Below, in pieces: positions 1 to 15,005 of a stretch of 28,347 nt of DNA; the stretch's first letter is position 1; the number at the start of each line of letters is the position of its first letter. Origin of the DNA: a virus; IMG/VR virus record IMGVR_UViG_3300031857_001044, positions 1 through 28,347 of that record. The stretch is one strand, 5' to 3'. The notes under the pieces were generated by a model that saw only the letters and a list, made by a program, of their open reading frames with translations, was not told the DNA's origin and made no database searches. The position numbers and the translations under genes are program-made.

Positions 1-2404
1 AGCCGCCCTGGAAGGTGGGCTTGACCGGAGACTTGATGGGCGAGGGCGGCTCGGCGGGCTTGGCAGCGCCAGCACTCGGCGTCGCGGCCGGGGCCTGCTG
101 CGGGATCGCGTGAAAGACTTTCAGATCCTCGACGAGCTGCAAAAGGGCCTTGCCGTTCTTGGAGATCGGCGGGTTGCCGATCGTGACCTTCGCGGTCCCG
201 GCCTGGATCTGCAGCATTCGTTTCCCGTCGATGACGACCGGCAGCACGGCGTTGGCCGTCGTGATCGCGCCCTGCTTCAAGAGGGCTGCCGCGACCTTCT
301 GGAACTTCTCGGTATTGGGGCCGGCGAAGGTCGGCATCGCCGGCTTCTGGACCGCGGGTCCGGGCGGCGGTGCAGGCGGCGGTGCCGCGGGCGTTACCGA
401 GGCCGCGGGGTCCTGGCCCTTCACGTCGAGCCCGGCGAAGCCGAAGATGTAGTCGCGGCGCTTCTTCAAGGTGAACGCCAGGTCGGCCTTGCCGGCGGCA
501 TCGCCGGGACCGTGCGCGTCGACCAGCTTGTCGATGACGTCGTCCGTCATCACGGCCAGCTTCTTCGCCGAGGCCGCGATCTGGCTCGTGGTCATCGAGC
601 CGAAGACCGCCGCCGCCTGGGCGTTGATCTTGGGGTCGCGCAGCGTCGTCATCTCGGTGGCCGCGGTGCCGAGCTTGTCCTTGGGCAGCCCCTGAGCGCG
701 GAACAGCAGCGCCCCGCCCGGGTCGATGTTGACGGCCTTGCCGTCCTTCATCACCAGGTTGTCGAAGGACATGCCGACCACGTCGTAGTTGGAGAGCCAG
801 GCGTGGACCGCGAAGTCTGCCTGCGCCGCGGCCAGGTGTGCCGGATTGTTCTTGTCGAAGGCGGTGACGCCATCGATCATCTTCGAGGCCACGCCAAGCC
901 CGCCCCCGTGCTGGCCTTCCAGGTTGACGAGCTTCATCTCCGGGGCACCGACGCCGGCGGCCAGCATCAGCTTGGCGGCCAGGATCTCGTTCTTCGCCCG
1001 GTCGTCGGAGACGGTCTGGGTGACGGCGCCGGAGACGAGCTTGGCGTTACCCTTGACCAGCCATTTGTCCTCGCCGTCGGAATAGATCGCCCCGGGGTTC
1101 GAGCCGCCCGGCTTGGCGGCGGTCTTTGACCAGCCCGAGAGCGCCTGCGGCCCGGAGATCTTCTCGGCCGTTGCCGCGGCCTTGACCGACGAGGCCTTGG
1201 CGTCGATCAGGGCCTTGGCGTAGAAGGCGGCCCCAGCGGCCCATTTGAGCTGCGAGTTGATCGCCTGCTTGGCGGCCTGCTTCTCGTTGAACTCGGTGAG
1301 CTTCTTGCCGGCGATCTGGGCTACCGCCATGGCCGGGCCCTTGTCGCCCGCGGCGGCGGCGGTGTAGGCGGCCTGGGCGAGGTTCTGCCACTTGGTATTG
1401 GTCGTGGACCCCACCTTGGGCGGCAGCGGCAGCCCGGCGGCGTCGAAGCTCTTCCATTGCCCGCCGATCGGCGTGCCCGCCTCCCAGCGCGGCTGCGCAG
1501 ACCAGGCCCCCTTGGACGGGACCTTAGCCTTCTTGACCTTCTCTGCGGCCGCCAGGCGGTCGACGAGCTGCTGGTCGTGCGGCTTATTCAGGAAGTTCTT
1601 GAGCTGGCTGCGGGGCGCCAGGCGCATGGCCTGAGTCTCCCAGCCCATGTCCTTGGGCGTTCCGCCCTCGCGCACGGCCACGTAATAGCGGGCCTTGGAG
1701 GTGTCGCGGTCGACGTCGCCCAGGATGCCGACGATCCGGACCTTGAGCCCGGTTTCCTCGTAGGCCTCCTTGATGGCGTTGGCCTGCAGCGAGAGGCCCG
1801 GCTCGGCGGTGCCCTTGGGGTAGGTGTGCTTGTAGCCGCCGAACTCGTTGGTGGGCTTGGTCAGCCAGACCCGGCCGTCCGGCTCCAGGATGACGACGCC
1901 AGAGCCGACCGTCTTGTTGGGGGTGGCCACGAACGGGACGTCGTCGTCGATGCCCTTCATCTGGCCCGGCACCTTCGACCATCCGGCGAGGGTGGTCGGC
2001 GCCTTCCAGGGCTTGAGCGCGACGCCGTTCAGGCTGTCCGGCGTGTTGCCGCCGGGCGTGAAGGTCGCGGTCTTCTTCGGGTCGGTCCAGGTGTCCTTAT
2101 GGCTGGGCACGGATGGGTAATTGACCATCACGGGCGTGCCCTTCTCGCCCAGCTTGGGGTGCGGCTTGGCGTTGGGCCCTGGCTGCGCCTTGGAGGCCCA
2201 GGAGGCGCCGCCGAAGCCGAAGCCGAAGGTCAGCTGCGGGATGAGCAAGGAGCCACCAGCGAGGCTCTTGGGCGCGAACTGACCGCCCTTCTTGCCGGGG
2301 GCGCCGGCCGGCCAGCGGTTGCCCTTCATCTTCGAGAGCGTGATCTGCAGCCGGATCTCCGAGAGCTGGTCGGCGATCTCCTTGGTGATGGTCTTGGTCG
2401 TCAC
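1..2404 (-). CDS. Nudix + PI3K/HipA-like kinase head-region protein (3' end missing)
   Basis: Partial gene: the GTG start is at 2404 and the frame is still open at the left edge (about 801 codons seen). It begins 3 bases after the preceding gene stops. Near residues 29-45 is a basic Gly-rich motif (RWPAGAPGKKGGQFAPK); a related RWEAGTPIGGQW lies near residue 305. A Nudix box spans residues 198-220: it keeps the metal-binding KEAYEETGL core but has Leu for the first Glu and Lys for the Arg. From about 430 to 660 there is a kinase-like fold: Gly-rich SNPGA, an ATP-type lysine in WLVK (K451), then NYDVVGMSFDN (D541, D548, N549) and IDPGG (D561). Pro/Ala-rich linkers follow, then a PTFAGP unit and a second PTFQGG at the edge, suggesting repeats further left. 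Position after MuF suggests a virion-associated protein. The domain calls rest on motifs read by eye; nucleotide hydrolysis and kinase activity are inferred. Confidence 0.75.
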   Translation of the reverse strand, partial: MTTKTITKEIADQLSEIRLQITLSKMKGNRWPAGAPGKKGGQFAPKSLAGGSLLIPQLTFGFGFGGASWASKAQPGPNAKPHPKLGEKGTPVMVNYPSVPSHKDTWTDPKKTATFTPGGNTPDSLNGVALKPWKAPTTLAGWSKVPGQMKGIDDDVPFVATPNKTVGSGVVILEPDGRVWLTKPTNEFGGYKHTYPKGTAEPGLSLQANAIKEAYEETGLKVRIVGILGDVDRDTSKARYYVAVREGGTPKDMGWETQAMRLAPRSQLKNFLNKPHDQQLVDRLAAAEKVKKAKVPSKGAWSAQPRWEAGTPIGGQWKSFDAAGLPLPPKVGSTTNTKWQNLAQAAYTAAAAGDKGPAMAVAQIAGKKLTEFNEKQAAKQAINSQLKWAAGAAFYAKALIDAKASSVKAAATAEKISGPQALSGWSKTAAKPGGSNPGAIYSDGEDKWLVKGNAKLVSGAVTQTVSDDRAKNEILAAKLMLAAGVGAPEMKLVNLEGQHGGGLGVASKMIDGVTAFDKNNPAHLAAAQADFAVHAWLSNYDVVGMSFDNLVMKDGKAVNIDPGGALLFRAQGLPKDKLGTAATEMTTLRDPKINAQAAAVFGSMTTSQIAASAKKLAVMTDDVIDKLVDAHGPGDAAGKADLAFTLKKRRDYIFGFAGLDVKGQDPAASVTPAAPPPAPPPGPAVQKPAMPTFAGPNTEKFQKVAAALLKQGAITTANAVLPVVIDGKRMLQIQAGTAKVTIGNPPISKNGKALLQLVEDLKVFHAIPQQAPAATPSAGAAKPAEPPSPIKSPVKPTFQGG

Positions 2405-2407
2405 GTT

Positions 2408-3292
2408 TCAGCCTTTTCCGCCCGAATGGCGGGGATGCTCCTTGGGCAGGAGGTCGTTGTCCTGGATGTAGCCGGGCCGGGCGGGCGAGCCGCGGCGTAG
2501 CAGCGTGAGGTGCGCGTTGACCCGGGCCATGGCCCAGGCCGAGCGGGAGACGCCCGGGCGGTGGCTCACCGAATAAGCGCCGGCACCACGGCGCCAGACG
2601 GCCTTGAGCGCGGCGAGCGACGCCTTCTTGGCCGGGTCGCTACCGTGCGCCTCGTTGTGCTCCTCGACCTTGCGCTTGAGGCCGGCTTCGGCCGCGTCGT
2701 CGAGCTCGATGCCGCCTGCACGACCGGCCGCCGAGCCCTTGGGGTTCTTGTCCGAGCCGCGGATCCGGTCCTCGGGCGGGGCCGGCGTCTTGCGCGGGTC
2801 CTCGGCCTTGTCGATGTCCTTGCGGCCCATGGGCACGGGCACGTGCACGGCCGACGGCGTCGGGCCCATCTTCTCCAGGCGGCTCTTGATCCCTTCGGCC
2901 CAGGCCTTGCCGGCGTTGCCGCCCCAGAGCAGCCAGGCGATCGTCCCGGCCGTAGGCCCACCGTCGGGCTCTTTCACGTCGGGGCGGTAGTTCTTAGCGT
3001 GGCGTGAGAAGAAACCCGTCATCTGGCCGATCACCTGGTCGGAGATCGCGTCGCCGTTGGCGAGGTTCGTGGCCCGCTGCACGCCAGAGCCGATGCCCTG
3101 GTCGCTGGCCTGCGCGTTGGAGAGGCCTCCCCGCTTCCATTTGCGGCGCAGCTCCAGGCCACGGCGGGCAGCGCTGCGGACGGACTCGGGCGGAACGTGG
3201 CCGCCATCGGATTTCTCCACCCGTAGAATTGACGCAGAGATCCGCGCCTTGAGCAGCAAGATGCGGTTATGAAGATCGTAAGTCGTGGCCAT
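2408..3292 (-). CDS. Conserved two-domain phage head-region protein
   Basis: 294 aa, ATG start with GGAG seven bases upstream. Residues 33-133 hold a module seen in many phage proteins: VPPESVRSAARRGLELRR, then FFSRHAKN, then TIAWLLWGGNAGKAW. A charged linker follows. Residues about 222-294 form a second module, AVWRRGAGAYS, SHRPGVSRSAWAMARVNAHL, and a YIQDNDLLP end. Both modules turn up in phages next to portal, MuF or prohead genes and are thought to be structural or assembly-related, but I know of no proven activity. No signal peptide or membrane segment. It lies between MuF and the Nudix-kinase gene in the leftward head operon, so a role in capsid assembly or packaged cargo is the natural inference. 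Confidence 0.8.
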   Translation of the reverse strand: MATTYDLHNRILLLKARISASILRVEKSDGGHVPPESVRSAARRGLELRRKWKRGGLSNAQASDQGIGSGVQRATNLANGDAISDQVIGQMTGFFSRHAKNYRPDVKEPDGGPTAGTIAWLLWGGNAGKAWAEGIKSRLEKMGPTPSAVHVPVPMGRKDIDKAEDPRKTPAPPEDRIRGSDKNPKGSAAGRAGGIELDDAAEAGLKRKVEEHNEAHGSDPAKKASLAALKAVWRRGAGAYSVSHRPGVSRSAWAMARVNAHLTLLRRGSPARPGYIQDNDLLPKEHPRHSGGKG

Positions 3293-3309: not shown

Positions 3310-3537
3310 GTGGAGAGGCTCGATAACCTCCAAGTTTACAGGCGACTTCTGTCCTTGTGCGACGAGCTGTCGGAGCTGGCCGACCGCTGCTGGTCGCCGG
3401 CCGGGAAGACCGCGATCTTGATCGTGGCGAACTCGGCTCGGATCATGAGCCGGGCCCTCTACAAGGGTGGGGTGAAGGACTCCATCGACGCGATGCAGGG
3501 GCCGCGGATCCCTCGGCGCTACCGCGTCCGCCGCTAG
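3310..3537 (+). CDS. Small basic protein on the opposite strand inside the head operon
   Basis: 75 aa, not recognised. The GTG start has AAAGGA ten bases upstream. It fills the 241-base gap between the leftward MuF and two-domain genes, and its TAG shares the CTAG tetranucleotide with the MuF stop, so the two genes converge with overlapping stops. The product looks mainly alpha-helical, with an amphipathic N-terminal half (LLSLCDELSELADRCW) and a strongly basic tail (RIPRRYRVRR), as in small nucleic-acid-binding proteins. Codon use is GC3-rich like its neighbours. A weak TTGAGC/GAAGAT promoter may lie inside the start of the leftward gene. It could be a moron-like gene; the alternative is that the gap is leader sequence and the ORF is chance. 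Confidence 0.55.
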   Translation: MERLDNLQVYRRLLSLCDELSELADRCWSPAGKTAILIVANSARIMSRALYKGGVKDSIDAMQGPRIPRRYRVRR

Positions 3538-4670
3538 TCGGCGAGTTGTTCGGCCTCGAAGCGCCGGATCCAGACCGTGCAGCGGCAGTTGGGGTGCGCC
3601 GGCGGCAGCGTCATCGGGCCCTGGGGTGTGTTGAAGGGCTGACCGAACTTGACCCCGCGCTTGGGGTTCATGGCCGGGATGGGACCGCAGATCTCGCACA
3701 AGCGCTCGTCCCGGGCGACGATCCATTGCCGGCGGACGAGCTGCTCTGGCACCTTGAACTCGTCGATGGCCTGCCGCCAGGCGTCCTGGATCCCGAAATT
3801 GGTCGTCCTCAGCGCCTCGGTCCGGGCGATCGTCTGGGCCCGGAACTGCAGGTACTTGCGCGAGTAGGCCGCCACCATCTTGTCGATCTGGGCCTCGGTG
3901 AGCGGCTTGCCGGTGGCCATGGCGTTCTTAAGCGTGCCGTCGAAGCGGAAGTCGCGCAGCCGGCGCTCCAGGATCCCGTCCTTGACGTTCCCCTCGGCGT
4001 CCAGCGCGTAGGTCTGGGCTCCGCCCGGGGCGCGGGAAATCTTGCCGCCCAGGTTCCAGCCCGCGGCCCCGCCGCGCAGGTGGAAGCTCTCCAGCTCCTT
4101 CTTGAAGTTGTCGACCGCCTTGGCCTGGCGGGCGGTCAGGCCGATGACGGGCTTGATCGAGCGGGCCTGGTCGCGGGGGTTCTGCCCGGCGCGCATGCCG
4201 GAGATGAGCACCTCGCGCACGCCCTCCCGGGTCGTCTCGTCGATCTGGCGGATAAGACCCAGGCTGTAGGTCTGCAGCCAGTCAATCAGGCGCGGGTTGA
4301 GGCGGTTGAACTGGAAAGCGGCCCCGGCGATGCGGTCGTTGATGGTCTTGGCGGCGACCCCGCCGGCGGACCAGACGGTGTCCTGCAGGGCGTTGGTGAC
4401 CCCCTCGGCGGGCGGCAGCTGCAGGAGGGCCATGACCTTGTTCACGTCCCCGGATTTGAGGGCCTCGGCAATGGCGTCGATATCCACGGCCGCGGCCTGG
4501 GCCTGGAGCGCGCCCAGGATGGCCTTGGACAGGCTCGGCTCCAGCTTGGCGGCCATGGCCTCCACCTCGGCCAGGTCGGCCGGCCGGCGGGCCTTCGTGA
4601 TGGCCTCGGGCGGCATCCAGGCGGGAACGAGGCGGCGGTAGGGGCCCTGCGGGTGTGCGGTAAATGTCAC
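3534..4670 (-). CDS. MuF-type head morphogenesis protein
   Basis: 378 aa from GTG 4670, chosen because GGAGGT lies nine bases upstream; an in-frame TTG at 4694 has no such site. The C-terminal half is a phage Mu gpF (SPP1 gp7-like) domain: an ARTEALRTTN helix, then QWIVARDERLCEICGP, and the terminal HPNCRCTVW signature with paired Cys/His probably binding zinc. The N-terminal 150 residues are helical and Ala-rich, as is usual for minor head proteins that contact the portal. Family members are minor capsid proteins needed for head assembly or DNA ejection. It lies two genes after portal in the same direction (with a rightward island between), the canonical portal-MuF order. Its promoter would lie in 4671-4746, shared with a divergent rightward promoter. 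Confidence 0.9.
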   Translation of the reverse strand: MTFTAHPQGPYRRLVPAWMPPEAITKARRPADLAEVEAMAAKLEPSLSKAILGALQAQAAAVDIDAIAEALKSGDVNKVMALLQLPPAEGVTNALQDTVWSAGGVAAKTINDRIAGAAFQFNRLNPRLIDWLQTYSLGLIRQIDETTREGVREVLISGMRAGQNPRDQARSIKPVIGLTARQAKAVDNFKKELESFHLRGGAAGWNLGGKISRAPGGAQTYALDAEGNVKDGILERRLRDFRFDGTLKNAMATGKPLTEAQIDKMVAAYSRKYLQFRAQTIARTEALRTTNFGIQDAWRQAIDEFKVPEQLVRRQWIVARDERLCEICGPIPAMNPKRGVKFGQPFNTPQGPMTLPPAHPNCRCTVWIRRFEAEQLAD

Positions 4671-4688
4671 AGAAATGATACCTCCGAC

Positions 4689-4717
4689 TTGCAAAAGGCG
4701 CGTGTTGCGCTCATTAT
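4689..4717 (+). promoter_or_regulatory. Rightward promoter 1 with dyad in the spacer
   Basis: -35 TTGCAA (4689-4694), 17-base spacer, -10 CATTAT (4712-4717). The spacer ends with GGCGCGTGTTGCGCT (4697-4711), an imperfect inverted repeat (GGCGC-n5-GCGCT) directly abutting the -10. The same arrangement recurs at 6471-6499 and 9819-9848. A repressor bound here would block RNA polymerase. The predicted transcript starts about 23 bases before the gene at 4747. Confidence 0.75.
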
Positions 4718-6505: not shown

Positions 6506-6733
6506 ATGACCACCGATGAGTTCAACCTCCGTGCCTCGGCCTGCCTCGGCGGCCGCGGCTGGATGACCCGCCTGGCCGCCATCACCGGCGTCCATTACGC
6601 CACCGTCAAGCGGTGGGCCTCGGGCGAGCTCGTCGTCCCGGCCTACGCCTGCGCGCTGATCGAGCTCTTAGAGGTGGTGCCGGAGGCTATGCGTCCGGAG
6701 CGATTTCACCGCCAGGCGCGTCGGGCGGCATGA
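6506..6733 (+). CDS. Small XRE-like HTH protein; candidate repressor of the dyad promoters
   Basis: 75 aa. A helix-turn-helix is visible at about residues 14-52: WMTRLAAITGVHYATVKR, then WASGELVVPAYACALIELLE, the usual A..tGv...tv.rw.sG..pvp spacing of XRE-type proteins. The start at 6506 is fixed by the promoter: the -10 ends six bases upstream and there is no Shine-Dalgarno, so it is probably translated from a leaderless message. Its 3' end overlaps that of the leftward portal gene by 47 bases. Direct placement on a dyad that recurs at two other promoters makes it the best candidate for the protein that binds them; this is inference. Confidence 0.7.
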   Translation: MTTDEFNLRASACLGGRGWMTRLAAITGVHYATVKRWASGELVVPAYACALIELLEVVPEAMRPERFHRQARRAA

Positions 6734-8036
6734 AGTCCTCGGCCCCATCCTCCGGGGCCAGCGGCAGACCGGCCAGCTTGCGCAGGTGGTTCTCCAGCTC
6801 GCGGTCGGGGAAGAGCGTCGCCCCGGACTGAGCCAGCGTCTGAATAAAGGTCGAGACCTCGACCAGGTTCTGCTTCTCAAGGTCGGCCGGCACCAAGGTC
6901 GGCATCGTCGCGTAGTCGAGGCCGTTGAGCGACCAGAGCCGCGGCAGCAGATGGCGGTTGAAGGTGTCGGCGATCGACTTGGTGAAGGCGCCGAGCGCGG
7001 TGGCGAACAGCGCCGTCTTGTCGGACGAGAGCGCGAACGAGCCCACCGACTGCTGGCCCAGGAAGATGAAGTCGGCCAGGACCGAGGTGGCGATCGCCCG
7101 GTTGTAGCGGTCGATGACCTTGGAGGTGTCGAACTGGCGCGAGCCGCCGGTCGAGAGCAGCTCGAACTCGAACAGCCGGTTGCCCGAGCTGTCGCGGTCG
7201 GACGGGATCAGGATGCCTTCCTGCTGGTCGCGGCGGACCTGGGTCACCATCCGCTGCCAGGCCTGGAGGATGGCCTTGTCCTGCGCGTCGGCGGACTGGT
7301 CGAAATATTCGCCCGGAATCCGGGCCACGGGCAGGCCGGCCAGGTCGCGTTCCAGGCCGATGCCCTCGATCTCCTCGATGCGCTTCTTGAAGAACCATGG
7401 GCGGTAGGCGTTGCGCAGGATCGACCGGCCTTCCGGGTTCGACCGCTCGGCGGTCGTGCGGAACAGCAGCATCTTCTCGTAAGGGATCAGGACCTGCGGC
7501 CGCTCGATCGGCTGCTGGACGACGCCTTGCAGCGAGCCGTCCTCGGGGCTGATCTCCCAGCGGACGATGGTCTGCTGGCTGCGCAGCGCGATCTGCCGGA
7601 TGCCGATCAGGCCGTCCTCGTAGGACGAGCGGCGCGCCGGGTCGGTCTGCTTCTGGCCCAGGCGGCGCTTCCAGACGATCTCCATGGGCGCGTAGCCGTA
7701 GACGAACATCGAGCAGATCTCGCCGATGACCTCGGTCCATGGTGTGTCGAGATCGTCGAGGACTTCCTCGACGAACGTCTTGCCGGCGTCGCCTTCCTCG
7801 TCGTCGGTGGCCGCCTGGACGGTCCACTCGCATTGGCGGACGAGGGTGGTGATCGCGAACAGCATGGCCCCGACGATCGGGTCGTTGTCGGCCATCTCGC
7901 GGTAGACGCGGACCCCGCGCTCGGCGCGCAGCTCCTTGAGGAACTCCTCGGTGATATAGCCGCCATATTGGCGCAGCCCCGGGGTACCGATCGAGGTGGG
8001 GTCGAATTTGAGTTTTCCGGGTGCGACGTCAGCCAT
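6687..8036 (-). CDS. Portal protein, Mu gp29-like (DUF935)
   Basis: 449 aa, the usual portal length. The N-terminus has the LKFDPTS, GLRQYGG, YREMADNDPIVGAMLFAI pattern of DUF935/Mu gp29-like portals (ring-forming proteins through which DNA enters the head). Further along are RWEISPEDGSLQGVVQQ, YEKMLLFRTTAERSNPEGRSILRNAY, and a C-terminal SVLADFIFLGQQSVGSFALSSDKT region, all portal landmarks. The start at 8036 overlaps the terminase stop by eight bases. The acidic, Pro-rich tail (PPDAPGGEIAPDA) overlaps the convergent HTH gene. Function as portal is secure by family and by order terminase-portal-MuF. Confidence 0.92.
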   Translation of the reverse strand: MADVAPGKLKFDPTSIGTPGLRQYGGYITEEFLKELRAERGVRVYREMADNDPIVGAMLFAITTLVRQCEWTVQAATDDEEGDAGKTFVEEVLDDLDTPWTEVIGEICSMFVYGYAPMEIVWKRRLGQKQTDPARRSSYEDGLIGIRQIALRSQQTIVRWEISPEDGSLQGVVQQPIERPQVLIPYEKMLLFRTTAERSNPEGRSILRNAYRPWFFKKRIEEIEGIGLERDLAGLPVARIPGEYFDQSADAQDKAILQAWQRMVTQVRRDQQEGILIPSDRDSSGNRLFEFELLSTGGSRQFDTSKVIDRYNRAIATSVLADFIFLGQQSVGSFALSSDKTALFATALGAFTKSIADTFNRHLLPRLWSLNGLDYATMPTLVPADLEKQNLVEVSTFIQTLAQSGATLFPDRELENHLRKLAGLPLAPEDGAEDFMPPDAPGGEIAPDA

Positions 8037-9312
8037 TTAGATCTCCGGTCGGCATGCCGCCAAGCCAGGGAGAGATCTTCGTCTCCCCGCCCGGCCTCAT
8101 CGCCGTGAATATTGCGGGCGCGATCTGGCGGTGCTGCTCGACGGCCAGCGCCAGCGCCATCACGCAGTCGTCATTGTATCCCGCCGGGGCGGTGTAGCGT
8201 ACTCCGGTGCGCGTGTACTCGTACTCGAACAGCTCCAGCTCCGAGCGGATTGGTCCGTCGGGGATCTTGATGTCGCCGGACTGGATGACGACGGCCAGGC
8301 CCTCCATGAGACGCTGCTTGGACGACGACGAGAACTTGAAGCCCTCGATGGTCCGGCGCTTCTTCTGCATCCGCTCGACGATCGGATCGCCGACCCCGGT
8401 GGAGTCGACGAGCGTGCGGGTCTTGCCGACCAGGCCAAGGATGCGGCTCTCGGTCTCGTCCCATGGCACGCCCTGCCAGCGGTCGAAGCCGCAGACGGCG
8501 CGCTGCTTGTCGAGGCCCACGACCACGGTCCAGTCGACCGATTTGGCGAGGTCGACGCCGCAGGCGATCGGCGGCGCGTCGGAGATCGGGCCGATGCAGC
8601 GAGCGATGTTCTTGATGCCGAAGGGGTTCCCCTCGTCGTCGGAGGGCTCGGCCAGGTAGAGCTCGCGGAACACATTCTCCGGGAGCTGGCGCTGCGCGTC
8701 GAGGATCTCGTCCTTGTCGAGCACCCCGCCCTCGACCGCGTCCCAGGCGGTGAGCTTGGCATAAGCCATGCCGGGCTCGCCGGATTCGGCCTTCCGGGCC
8801 ATCTTGAAGTGCCAGTTGGCCCGCCCCTTGACGTTTCCAATGATCCGGACCGGACCGCGGGTGGCGGTGAGCGTCGAGCGGACCGCGATCCAGCTGTCCT
8901 CCCGGACCCGCGACGCCTCGTCGATGACCGACGCGAAGACGTCCTCGCCGTAGAGGTTGTCGGGCTTCTCGCCGGACTTGAACCAGATCACGGCCCCGTT
9001 GGGCAGGGCGATGGTGAGGTCGCCCTCGTTGGCCGCGTACATCGCCCGCGGCAGGCCGCGTTTCAGGCGGCGGAAGGCGATCTTGGCCTGGGGGTAGACC
9101 GGTGCCACCCACCAGAAGTTGCGGCCCGGCTGGCCGTGCACGACGGCCTGCTCGAACAGCCAGGCCAGGCAGCCCACGGTCTTGCCGGCCTTGGTCGAGG
9201 CCTCGATGATCCCGTAGCGGGCCGGCAGACCGTTGACGTCCGCGCAGTCGAAGATGGCCGCCTGCTGCGCCGGATAGAGCCAGGGGCGGACATATTCAAT
9301 CGTCCGCTGCAT
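8029..9312 (-). CDS. terL: Terminase large subunit
   Basis: 427 aa from ATG 9312, overlapping the small subunit by 17 bases; the frame extends further but overlaps the upstream gene more. ATPase: Walker A-like EASTKAGKT at residues 37-45, Walker B FASVIDEA at 126-133. RNase H-like nuclease: CGVDLAKSVDWTVVV with D254, LVDSTGVGD with D303, and YNDDCVMALALA with D381/D382. It cleaves concatemers and drives DNA into the procapsid through the portal. A complete, intact gene with all catalytic acids in place. The packaging type (cos or pac) cannot be read from the motifs alone. Confidence 0.95.
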   Translation of the reverse strand: MQRTIEYVRPWLYPAQQAAIFDCADVNGLPARYGIIEASTKAGKTVGCLAWLFEQAVVHGQPGRNFWWVAPVYPQAKIAFRRLKRGLPRAMYAANEGDLTIALPNGAVIWFKSGEKPDNLYGEDVFASVIDEASRVREDSWIAVRSTLTATRGPVRIIGNVKGRANWHFKMARKAESGEPGMAYAKLTAWDAVEGGVLDKDEILDAQRQLPENVFRELYLAEPSDDEGNPFGIKNIARCIGPISDAPPIACGVDLAKSVDWTVVVGLDKQRAVCGFDRWQGVPWDETESRILGLVGKTRTLVDSTGVGDPIVERMQKKRRTIEGFKFSSSSKQRLMEGLAVVIQSGDIKIPDGPIRSELELFEYEYTRTGVRYTAPAGYNDDCVMALALAVEQHRQIAPAIFTAMRPGGETKISPWLGGMPTGDLNG

Positions 9313-9802
9313 CCCTCTCGCCGATCTTGAGCGTGAAGACGACCGGCGCCTCGCCGTCCTTGCCCGGCACCTCGACCTTGCCCACCGCGCTGCGCGCATC
9401 CTGGTCGCGCCAGCCGGCCCGGGCCTTGAGGTAGAAGATCCCGGCGGTGACGACGTTCTTGTGGGTCTTGTCGGTGGCGACCGAGAACAGCGTCTTGGCG
9501 ACCTGGGCGTGGGCGAAGATGTCGCCGTGCTCCAGCTCCTCCCCGAAGTGCTTTCGGAGCGTCTTGGGGTCGATGCCCTGCGGCCAGTTGATGAGCTTGG
9601 CGACCTGTTCCTCGGTGTAGCCGACCCCGCGCAAGAGCACCACGAGCTGCCGGTGCTCGGGCTTGGGCTCGAACACCATGCCCGTTTTTTTAGTGCGGGA
9701 ACCCTCGCCTGGGCGAAAGAGGTCCTGCACCGGGGGTTTCTTGCCGGCGGCAGCAGGGCTTCGGGCAGCCGTTTTTCGGGGTTTCGGGGCCTGTTTTGTC
9801 AT
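9296..9802 (-). CDS. terS: Terminase small subunit-like DNA-binding protein
   Basis: 168 aa. A basic Lys/Pro/Ala-rich N-terminal 35 residues is followed by an HTH-like region: HRQLVVLLRGVGYTEEQVAKL then GIDPKTLRKHFGEEL, then helices (HAQVAKTLFSVATD, IFYLKARAGWRD). This is the pattern of small terminase-type proteins that recognise the packaging site and recruit the large subunit. It directly precedes terL with overlap, and is the first gene of the leftward late operon. Its start at 9802 faces the rightward promoter at 9819-9848. Small subunits diverge fast, so the call leans on the HTH plus position. Confidence 0.8.
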   Translation of the reverse strand: MTKQAPKPRKTAARSPAAAGKKPPVQDLFRPGEGSRTKKTGMVFEPKPEHRQLVVLLRGVGYTEEQVAKLINWPQGIDPKTLRKHFGEELEHGDIFAHAQVAKTLFSVATDKTHKNVVTAGIFYLKARAGWRDQDARSAVGKVEVPGKDGEAPVVFTLKIGERDAADD

Positions 9803-13389: not shown

Positions 13390-13560
13390 TCACGCCGCGC
13401 CGAAAAAGGTCCAGCCAATCTGAAAGGCCTCCCAGGCGCCACGGATGATCATGCCGATGACGACCAGGCCGGCGACCCAGGCGCAGGTGACCAGGCCCCA
13501 CACCGCGGCCTTCTCGACCACGGTCTCCAGGGCATCGGCGATCCGCTGAACCGACATCAT
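13390..13560 (-). CDS. Small single-TM protein
   Basis: 56 aa from ATG 13560 (or the adjacent ATG 13557), overlapping the methyltransferase stop (ATGATG). Residues 18-40 form a membrane helix (AAVWGLVTCAWVAGLVVIGM). The N-terminal part is amphipathic (VQRIADALETVVEK) and the end is aromatic (AFQIGWTFFGAA). Small size and tight coupling support translation. Could be a holin- or antiholin-like partner of the neighbouring DUF7220 protein, but no family is recognised. Confidence 0.65.
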   Translation of the reverse strand: MMSVQRIADALETVVEKAAVWGLVTCAWVAGLVVIGMIIRGAWEAFQIGWTFFGAA

Positions 13561-14876
13561 GCCTTCTCCTTGGCGGTGGACTTGGCGGCGGCCTTCTTCT
13601 TGGCGGCCTTCTCCGCCCCGACGATGACCTTGGCCGGCTGCCGTTCGGCCAGGATCTCGGTGAAGGTCCGCCCGTCGCCGTCGAGCACGGCGTTCTGGCC
13701 CGTGAAGGCCTGCCAGCGCAGGATGGCGACGTCGACATAGGCCGGGTTGAGCTCGACCGCGTAGACGCAGCGGCCGGTCATCTCGCCGGCGATGATGGTG
13801 GTGCCCGAGCCCGAGAACGGCTCGTAGACGGCCTGGCCCGGGCTGGAGTTGTTCTCGATTGGGCGCTTCATGCACTCGACGGGCTTCTGGGTGCCGTGGA
13901 TCGTCTCGGCGTCCTCGCCCTTCTGGTCGATCGTCCAGAGCGTCGTCTGCTTGCGGTCGCCGGCCCAATGGCCCTTGCCGGTCTTGCGGACGGCGTACCA
14001 GCAGGGCTCGTGCTGCCAATGGTAGTCGCCGCGGCCGATGACCAGGCGCGGCTTGGCCCAGATGATCTGGGAGCGGATGTTGAAGTCGCAGGCCATGAGG
14101 CTCTCGGCCACCGTGGTGGCGTGCAGGGCCCCGTGCCAGACATAGGCGACGTCGCCCGGGAACAGGGCCCAGGCGTCGCGCCAGTCGGCGACGTCGTCGT
14201 TCAAGACCTTGCCCGTGCGCTTGGAGTTGTTCACGCCGACCTTGTGGCGCCACTCGGGGTCGTAATTCACGCCGTAGGGCGGATCGGTGACCATGAGGTT
14301 CGGCTTGACCGGCCCGAACAGGCGCGTGACGTCCGTCTCGACGGTGGAGCTGCCGCAGATGATCCGGTGGTTGCCCATGACCCACAAGTCGCCCGGCACG
14401 GAGACAGGGTCCTCGGGCGGCGGTGGGATCTCGTCCGGGTCGGTGAGGCCATCGGTCCCGTCCGGTGCCAGGAGGCCGTCGAGCATCTTGCCGTCGAAGC
14501 CCAGGAGGTCGAGGTCGAAGCCCATCTGTCCGAGCTCGGCCACCTCGACCTTCAAGAGGTCCAGGTCCCAGCCGGCGTTCAAGGCCAGCTGGTTGTCGGC
14601 GATGACGTAGGCGCGTTTCTGCGCCTCGCTCATGTTCTTGAGCTCGATGACCGGCACCTCGGCCAGGCCGAGCTTGCGGGCCGCCATGACCCGGCCGTGG
14701 CCGGCGATGATGCCGTTCTCGCCGTCGACCAGGACCGGATTGGTCCAGCCGAACTCCCGGATTGAGGAAGCGATCTGCGCCACCTGGGCGTCGGAATGGG
14801 TGCGGGAGTTTCGGGCGTAGGGGATCAGGTCCCCGATCGGTCGGTACTGGACCGCCAGCTTGTTCGAATCGGCCAT
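13557..14876 (-). CDS. ParB-domain DNA methyltransferase (N6-adenine/N4-cytosine, beta class)
   Basis: 439 aa. Residues 10-80 are a ParB-like domain (LIPYARNSRTHSDAQV, the GENGIIAGHGRVMAARKLG core). Residues 165-395 are an amino-DNA methyltransferase with the catalytic DPPYGV at 198-203 preceding the SAM-binding FSGSGTT at 354-360, the beta-class motif order. The tail is Lys/Ala-rich. Family members methylate A-N6 or C-N4 at short sites, and phage copies often protect DNA from host restriction. No restriction enzyme is next to it, so it is an orphan. ATG 14876 has no Shine-Dalgarno and lies just after a terminator-like hairpin; an upstream in-frame ATG at 14960 is also weak. Recognition site unknown. 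Confidence 0.92.
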   Translation of the reverse strand: MADSNKLAVQYRPIGDLIPYARNSRTHSDAQVAQIASSIREFGWTNPVLVDGENGIIAGHGRVMAARKLGLAEVPVIELKNMSEAQKRAYVIADNQLALNAGWDLDLLKVEVAELGQMGFDLDLLGFDGKMLDGLLAPDGTDGLTDPDEIPPPPEDPVSVPGDLWVMGNHRIICGSSTVETDVTRLFGPVKPNLMVTDPPYGVNYDPEWRHKVGVNNSKRTGKVLNDDVADWRDAWALFPGDVAYVWHGALHATTVAESLMACDFNIRSQIIWAKPRLVIGRGDYHWQHEPCWYAVRKTGKGHWAGDRKQTTLWTIDQKGEDAETIHGTQKPVECMKRPIENNSSPGQAVYEPFSGSGTTIIAGEMTGRCVYAVELNPAYVDVAILRWQAFTGQNAVLDGDGRTFTEILAERQPAKVIVGAEKAAKKKAAAKSTAKEKA

Positions 14877-14888
14877 GTCGCGGTGCGG

Positions 14889-14923
14889 AAAAAGGTGCCC
14901 AGGGTCGCTGGCAAACCCTGGGC
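14889..14923 (-). terminator. Intrinsic terminator or attenuator before the methyltransferase
   Basis: Read on the minus strand: GCCCAGGGT, a 9-base loop, ACCCTGGGC, then ACCTTTTT. The 9-bp stem is perfect (14897-14905 with 14915-14923) and the U-run is three bases after it. It ends only 13 bases upstream of the methyltransferase ATG. It could attenuate that operon or stop leftward read-through from the replication operon across the antisense of the DUF932 genes. Confidence 0.65.
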
Positions 14924-15005
14924 GGCGGATGGAGGTGCCTGAGCACGGCACAGCCAGCATTCCTGAAAGGCTAACACCGAACGCACCCCCGGCACAAGGG
15001 CAAAA

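What the first reader, a model, noticed from the sequence alone, without database searches (positions are those of the whole stretch)
1..2404. Nudix and kinase-like domains in one head-region phage protein
One protein joins a Nudix box (with the salt-bridge Glu and Arg both changed but the metal site kept), a PI3K/HipA-like kinase core (K451, D541, D548-N549, D561), repeated RW-x-AG-P Gly-rich motifs and Pro-rich linkers with a repeating PTF unit. It is encoded just after MuF and the two-domain head protein. A nucleotide-processing plus phosphotransfer enzyme carried in or on the virion would be able to act on the host at injection, for example on alarmones, NAD derivatives or host proteins.
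Basis: partly seen in the sequence, partly recalled or inferred. Interest (0 to 1): 0.7.

Follow-up and report, generated by a model that had tools for sequence, protein, structure and literature searches.

The report
Phage-head effector: Nudix plus kinase
A phage gene next to the capsid genes encodes one long protein carrying a Nudix hydrolase and an unnamed protein-kinase-like enzyme (and, in its complete relatives, an ADP-ribosyltransferase); hundreds of related kinases occur in phages, some joined to capsid proteins, so these enzymes are probably carried in the virus particle and delivered into the bacterium to reprogram it.

Summary
The gene lies on the minus strand (2404 to 2, GTG start) and runs off the contig, so its C-terminus is missing. 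Residues 165-282 are a Nudix domain (Pfam E 6.7e-12; model pLDDT 95; nearest structures Ap4A and Ap6A hydrolases). Residues 424-660 fold as a kinase (pLDDT 97; nearest structure CtkA, then CotH and HipA). K451, E473, D541 and N549 are invariant in 118 of 118 relatives. No Pfam or NCBIfam family covers this kinase. A scan found at least 584 relatives in viral contigs and 72 in bacterial genomes. Complete relatives of the same clade end in an R-S-E ADP-ribosyltransferase (ART), so the missing end is most likely an ART. Nudix, kinase and ART occur fused, split into neighbouring genes, or in permuted order. The Nudix subfamily was seen without the kinase only at contig ends. In relatives the kinase is fused to MuF, minor capsid protein 2, or a DUF2213 head protein. 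The repeated RW-x-x-G-x-P-GGQF motif flanks the modules and also joins portal proteins to swappable toxin-like domains. Best reading: a virion-borne polyvalent effector built on an unnamed kinase family. Substrates are unknown.

The parts
2..2404 (-). Nudix-kinase polyvalent protein, 801 aa, GTG start, C-terminus cut by the contig end
   Evidence: GTG start and N-terminal sequence VTTKTI.KEIA conserved in L002
2267..2317 (-). tag 1: RWPAGAPGKKGGQFAPK (residues 30-46)
1559..1912 (-). Nudix domain (residues 165-282); the conserved N-terminal extension begins near residue 80
1745..1813 (-). Nudix box (residues 198-220), Glu to Leu and Arg to Lys, catalytic EE kept
1448..1489 (-). tag 2: RWEAGTPIGGQWKS (residues 306-319)
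1205..1432 (-). helix-rich linker module (about residues 325-400)
   Evidence: sequence; similar modules in relatives, inference
425..1135 (-). CtkA/HipA-fold kinase domain (residues 424-660); K451, E473, D541, N549, D561
2..337 (-). Pro-rich PTF-initiated linker modules leading to the missing C-terminus (ART expected)
2408..3292 (-). upstream 294-aa protein (phrog_2859 / DUF5824), its TGA stop 3 bases before the GTG start
3534..4694 (-). MuF-like head morphogenesis protein
   Evidence: phrog_3517 E 8e-67
6687..8036 (-). portal protein
   Evidence: phrog_113 E 1.5e-82
8029..9399 (-). terminase large subunit
   Evidence: phrog_2 E 2e-30

Best explanation
This is a virion-borne, host-directed multi-enzyme effector (a polyvalent protein) that carries a Nudix hydrolase, an unnamed CtkA/HipA-fold kinase and, beyond the contig end, most likely an R-S-E ADP-ribosyltransferase. 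It is made late with the head proteins, loaded into the head, and enters the cell with the DNA. There the kinase phosphorylates a host protein, the ART ADP-ribosylates host macromolecules as T4 Alt does, and the Nudix cleaves a nucleotide-diphosphate compound that goes with the kinase step. Shown here: the Nudix and kinase folds (as predicted models), conserved catalytic residues, head-gene context, and fusions of relatives to head proteins. Inferred: the ART at the missing end, packaging and injection, catalytic activity. Not known: substrates. Because Nudix and kinase are nearly always linked and their divergence tracks closely while the ART varies, the Nudix-kinase pair looks like one working unit and the ART a partly exchangeable arm.
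For: Pfam Nudix. Models with pLDDT 97.3 and 95.1. Foldseek: CtkA E 3.5e-5 prob 1.0; Ap4A hydrolase E 5e-10. Catalytic residues invariant across 118 kinases. Window kinase inside a supported set of 33 rows, 21 of them Nudix-kinase-ART. ART PF03496 at the C-terminus of complete relatives, with ExE in 56/56, Arg 50/56 and Ser 49/56. Of 130 distinct kinases, 68 have the Nudix and 63 the ART in the same or an adjacent protein. Of 80 loci found with the Nudix alone, 73 have the kinase and the other 7 lie at contig ends. Distance correlation kinase-Nudix 0.77, kinase-ART 0.29. MuF, portal or TerL within 8 kb in 30 of 41 Nudix-kinase loci. MuF-kinase-ART (L102, L108), min_cap2-kinase-ART (L118) and DUF2213-Nudix-kinase (L070) as single proteins. 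Permuted ART-kinase-Nudix in Pseudomonas chromosomes, the ART there weak. Split homologues labelled particle-associated in fHe-Yen8-01.
Against: The window protein itself has no visible ART. There is no mass spectrometry or activity data for any fused member. 'Particle associated' covers 52 of 136 genes of fHe-Yen8-01, including a primase and methyltransferases. Many kinases lack Nudix, ART or both. The kinase could use a small molecule or transfer AMP or an amino acid instead of phosphate, as other kinase-fold enzymes do. The distance correlations share a common phylogeny, and the Nudix query profile came from loci first found through the kinase.
Confidence: 0.72

Rival explanations
1. The protein is made late and acts inside the producing cell (nucleotide house-cleaning and phosphorylation of phage proteins during assembly) rather than being injected.
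For: Late-module location alone does not prove packaging; the particle-associated label in fHe-Yen8-01 is not selective.
Against: The same kinase is one polypeptide with MuF, minor capsid protein 2 and a DUF2213 head protein, and a viral structure hit is annotated as a portal protein. A pure assembly role would not explain repeated pairing with ARTs of several Pfam families.
Confidence: 0.13
2. An anti-host polymorphic toxin system for competition between lysogens, as proposed for MuF toxins: the C-terminal enzymes kill or stall competitors that lack immunity.
For: Tag-linked swappable nuclease-like domains on portal proteins; WXG100 and zeta-toxin architectures among kinase proteins; MuF toxins are known (PMC5576092).
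Against: No immunity gene was identified next to the window gene (not searched systematically); several carriers in this family are phages of 86-96 kb with large multi-enzyme proteins.
Confidence: 0.15
3. The kinase is a pseudo-enzyme or binding scaffold and only the ART (and perhaps the Nudix) is catalytic.
For: No activity data; distant from characterised kinases (12% identity to CtkA).
Against: K, E, N, D and N invariant in 118 of 118 sequences spanning several bacterial phyla, which selection would not keep in a scaffold.
Confidence: 0.05

Closest known systems
Polyvalent proteins of phages (Iyer et al. 2017, PMC5512222) and virion-packaged ART/Nudix proteins (2022 survey, PMC9503650)
   Same: Large multi-domain proteins near head genes, MuF and portal fusions, ART domains, predicted injection
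   Different: A search of those texts found no HipA- or PI3K-like kinase. The polyvalent kinase they describe lacks the whole C-lobe and keeps a His-Asp pair; this one has C-terminal helices and N539-x-D541. A Nudix-kinase pairing was not found in the passages read
Phage T4 Alt
   Same: ART encoded with structural genes and expected to enter with the DNA
   Different: Alt has no Nudix or kinase; the ART here is PF03496-like and known only from relatives
CtkA of Helicobacter pylori and HipA/HipT kinases
   Same: Same overall kinase fold (TM 0.64 to CtkA); Lys/Glu/Asp/Asn/Asp catalytic set
   Different: 12% identity; below the Pfam HipA_C cut-off; no HipB-like partner seen; different domain company
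MuF polymorphic toxins (PMC5576092)
   Same: Head-protein module joined to swappable C-terminal enzymes; some relatives are direct MuF-kinase-ART fusions
   Different: In the window MuF is a separate gene and the effector carries its own N-terminal tag
Split Nudix / kinase-ART genes of Aeromonas phage ST4, Pseudomonas phage Dolphis, Yersinia phage fHe-Yen8-01, Morganella phage Mecenats66
   Same: Homologous Nudix, kinase and ART domains at one locus
   Different: Encoded as two proteins with a ~160-aa protein between; kinase unannotated there

Membership tests
Nudix hydrolase superfamily | PF00293 match above the curated cut-off | tested here: met
   46 bits against 21.1, E 6.7e-12
Nudix hydrolase superfamily | Catalytic glutamates of the Nudix box (REUxEE) | tested here: met
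   E213, E216, E217 present; the matching Glu columns invariant in 52 sequences
Nudix hydrolase superfamily | Canonical salt-bridge Glu and Arg of the box | tested here: not met
   L204 and K212; substitution is family-wide, ST4 keeps the canonical pair
Protein-kinase-like fold, CtkA/HipA branch | Kinase fold with ATP Lys, helix-C Glu, catalytic Asp, Asn and metal Asp | tested here: met
HipA toxin family (PF07804) | Score above the HipA_C cut-off | tested here: not met
   14 bits against 30.5
HipA toxin family (PF07804) | Adjacent HipB-like antitoxin | not tested
   no HTH partner looked for systematically; immediate neighbours are head genes
Polyvalent-protein kinase of PMC5512222 | Loss of the whole C-terminal subdomain; conserved His-Asp pair with insert | tested here: not met
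   model has C-terminal helices 162-234; N-x-D instead of His-Asp
Virion-packaged ART polyvalent protein | ART domain in the polypeptide | tested here: inconclusive
   cut off by the contig end; present in complete relatives
Virion-packaged ART polyvalent protein | Presence in purified virions | not testable with these tools
   only an annotation for split homologues
MuF polymorphic toxin | MuF domain in the same polypeptide | tested here: not met
   separate gene in the window; met in relatives L102, L108

The most novel reading that the evidence does not exclude
Nudix and kinase form an obligate two-step enzyme unit acting on one shared host target or metabolite (for example making or trimming a nucleotide-linked mark next to the ART's ADP-ribosylation), delivered by virions through a short RWxxGxP-GGQF tag that phages reuse to attach exchangeable effector domains to head proteins.
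Probability: 0.2. Interest if true: 0.85.

Novelty: new variant of a known kind. Interest (0 to 1): 0.62.

Why it matters
It points to a widespread kinase family (at least 584 viral and 72 genomic loci) absent from Pfam and NCBIfam that sits where T4-Alt-like injected enzymes sit, and in which one Nudix subfamily is tied to the kinase almost without exception. That gives a concrete, testable set of enzymes for how phages reprogram a cell at entry. The shared tag before swappable domains suggests a general way phages load effectors into the head.

Tried and rejected
Plain sequence or profile search of the kinase against PDB gave only chance hits; fold comparison was needed. Pfam HipA_C and HipA_2 matches are below cut-off, so the domain was not filed as HipA. 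BLAST of the 30-aa tag against phage records found nothing; the degenerate DNA pattern scan worked instead. Two tag hits (L165, L179) lie at the very start of low-complexity ORFs and look like chance. The paper on Morganella phage Mecenats66 does not mention these proteins, and no paper in the held library names fHe-Yen8-01. PADLOC gave only a weak Nudix-like match for relatives and none for the window. A profile from the window's MuF missed the MuF part of MuF-kinase fusions; Pfam found it. A paired test of Nudix and ART linkage on the tree had too few independent contrasts to decide.

Full report
Observation. The window is one IMG/VR record of 28,347 bases. The gene lies on the minus strand from a GTG at 2404 down to base 2 and is open at its 3' end: 801 aa are readable and the C-terminus is missing. 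The TGA of the upstream 294-aa protein lies 3 bases before the GTG (sequence). Upstream, on the same strand, are MuF, portal and terminase genes.

Nudix. PF00293 matches residues 165-282 at E 6.7e-12. The model of residues 70-293 from 52 relatives has mean pLDDT 95.1, and its nearest solved structures are Ap4A hydrolase (E 5e-10), Ap6A hydrolase Ndx1 and a diadenosine polyphosphatase. The box lacks the usual salt-bridge Glu and Arg (L204, K212). In the relatives this is the rule: consensus G-x5-(L/M/I)-x7-K-E-a-(Y/F/W)-E-E-(T/S)-G-L. Aeromonas ST4 keeps both residues, and L111 and L085 keep the Arg. The catalytic Glu columns are invariant. So it is a subfamily trait and no sign of decay.

Kinase. 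No Pfam, PHROG or NCBIfam model covers residues 424-660 of the window protein, and HipA_C is matched only below its cut-off. The model from 118 relatives has mean pLDDT 97.3 and pTM 0.94. Foldseek ranks CtkA first (E 3.5e-5, probability 1.00, TM 0.64), then CotH, HipA and actin-fragmin kinase. K451, E473, N539, D541 and N549 are invariant in 118 of 118 sequences, D561 in 117, D548 in 102. The viral structure library returns phage proteins, some annotated as ADP-ribosyltransferase, one as portal protein and two as Nudix-domain proteins.

The missing part. Complete relatives such as L003 (49% identical) carry Nudix, kinase and an ART of PF03496 in one protein. In 56 ARTs the ExE motif is invariant, with Arg in 50 and Ser in 49. 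The nearest relative, L002 (74%), is also cut by its contig end but reaches further and contains the stretch that precedes the ART in L003. On a kinase tree the window lies in a supported set of 33 rows, 21 of which are Nudix-kinase-ART. The window protein therefore most likely ends in an ART; this is inference.

How the parts go together. Of 130 distinct kinase domains, 45 share a polypeptide with the Nudix and 23 more have it in a gene within 3 kb; 63 have the ART in the same or a neighbouring protein by my profile, and Pfam finds ART families in further proteins my profile missed. Orders vary: Nudix-kinase-ART; kinase-ART plus a separate Nudix gene; Nudix-kinase alone; kinase-Nudix; and, in Pseudomonas syringae-complex chromosomes, a weakly recognised ART followed by kinase and Nudix. 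Of the 80 best loci found with the Nudix profile alone, 73 hold the kinase; the other seven have the Nudix close to a contig end. That profile came from loci first found through the kinase, so more distant lone Nudix members could be missed. Pairwise distances of kinase and Nudix correlate at 0.77 over 58 loci, kinase and ART at 0.29 over 51. Shared ancestry inflates both figures, but the contrast suggests that Nudix and kinase move as a unit while the ART is exchanged more freely. The reverse does not hold: many kinases, including the MuF-fused ones, have no Nudix nearby.

Link to the virion. MuF, portal or terminase genes lie within 8 kb in 30 of 41 Nudix-kinase loci, MuF usually a few kilobases or less upstream. 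Stronger, some relatives are single proteins with MuF, kinase and ART (L102, L108), with minor capsid protein 2, kinase and ART (L118), or with a DUF2213 head protein, Nudix and kinase (L070). Among 39 further kinase proteins, 12 match Phage_Mu_F. In Yersinia phage fHe-Yen8-01 the kinase-ART protein, the small middle protein and the Nudix protein are all annotated particle-associated, but so are 52 of its 136 genes (my count), so this is moderate support only. No paper on that phage was found.

The RW motif. It occurs at residues 30 and 306, on either side of the Nudix domain; composition predicts about 1e-6 matches. In the first locus set 51 of 53 copies lay in proteins with these domains. 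A scan of IMG/VR for the encoded pattern gave 56 stretches, with the motif in frame in 49. Beyond this family it sits at the junction between portal proteins and variable C-terminal domains, including a ribonuclease-family match in L171 and a weak AHH-nuclease match in L188. L033, where Nudix and kinase-ART are separate genes, has one copy near the N-terminus of each. It therefore behaves as a module-border tag. Whether it binds head proteins, is cleaved, or is only a linker is not known.

Mechanism. Shown: predicted folds, conserved catalytic residues, gene context, fusions to head proteins. Inferred: late synthesis, loading into the head, entry with DNA, phosphorylation of a host protein, ADP-ribosylation of host targets, and Nudix cleavage of a nucleotide compound linked to the kinase step. 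Substrates are not known; similarity to Ap4A hydrolases and to HipA-type kinases, some of which are known to phosphorylate aminoacyl-tRNA synthetases (own knowledge), makes a translation/alarmone target a lead and no more.

Relation to known systems. Virion-packaged ARTs, Nudix fusions and multi-domain polyvalent proteins are described (PMC5512222, PMC9503650), as are MuF polymorphic toxins (PMC5576092). The polyvalent kinase described there lacks a C-lobe and keeps a His-Asp pair, which was tested here and not met. No held paper found by the searches describes this kinase family or its pairing with a Nudix; papers outside that library were not searched. The finding is filed as a new variant of a known kind.

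Noticed in passing
L171, L187, L188, L216: Portal proteins carry a C-terminal extension joined by the WPAGTPxGKGGQFRPK tag to variable toxin-like domains (ribonuclease-like, AHH-nuclease-like, others)
   Followed up: partly
L029:763-2460 (same protein in L030): Tagged protein with a helical module and an HEAAH metallopeptidase-like motif, encoded directly upstream of a Nudix-kinase-ART gene
   Followed up: partly
L124:7137-9284, also L125, L126, L145: Pseudomonas syringae-complex chromosomes encode a divergent ART-kinase-Nudix protein; a LacI-type regulator lies upstream in L124
   Followed up: partly
L136:7335-8618: Kinase fused to a DSP-PTPase phosphatase domain of the polymorphic-toxin type; four of 39 scanned kinase proteins share this
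   Followed up: no
L105:6795-8684: Endozoicomonas protein joining a Scabin-like ART (just below cut-off) to the kinase
   Followed up: no
L069, L071, L075, L088: Phages with two kinase genes: one kinase-ART protein and one compact Nudix-kinase protein
   Followed up: partly
window 13557-14960 (-): ParB-like nuclease/DNA methyltransferase fusion
   Followed up: no
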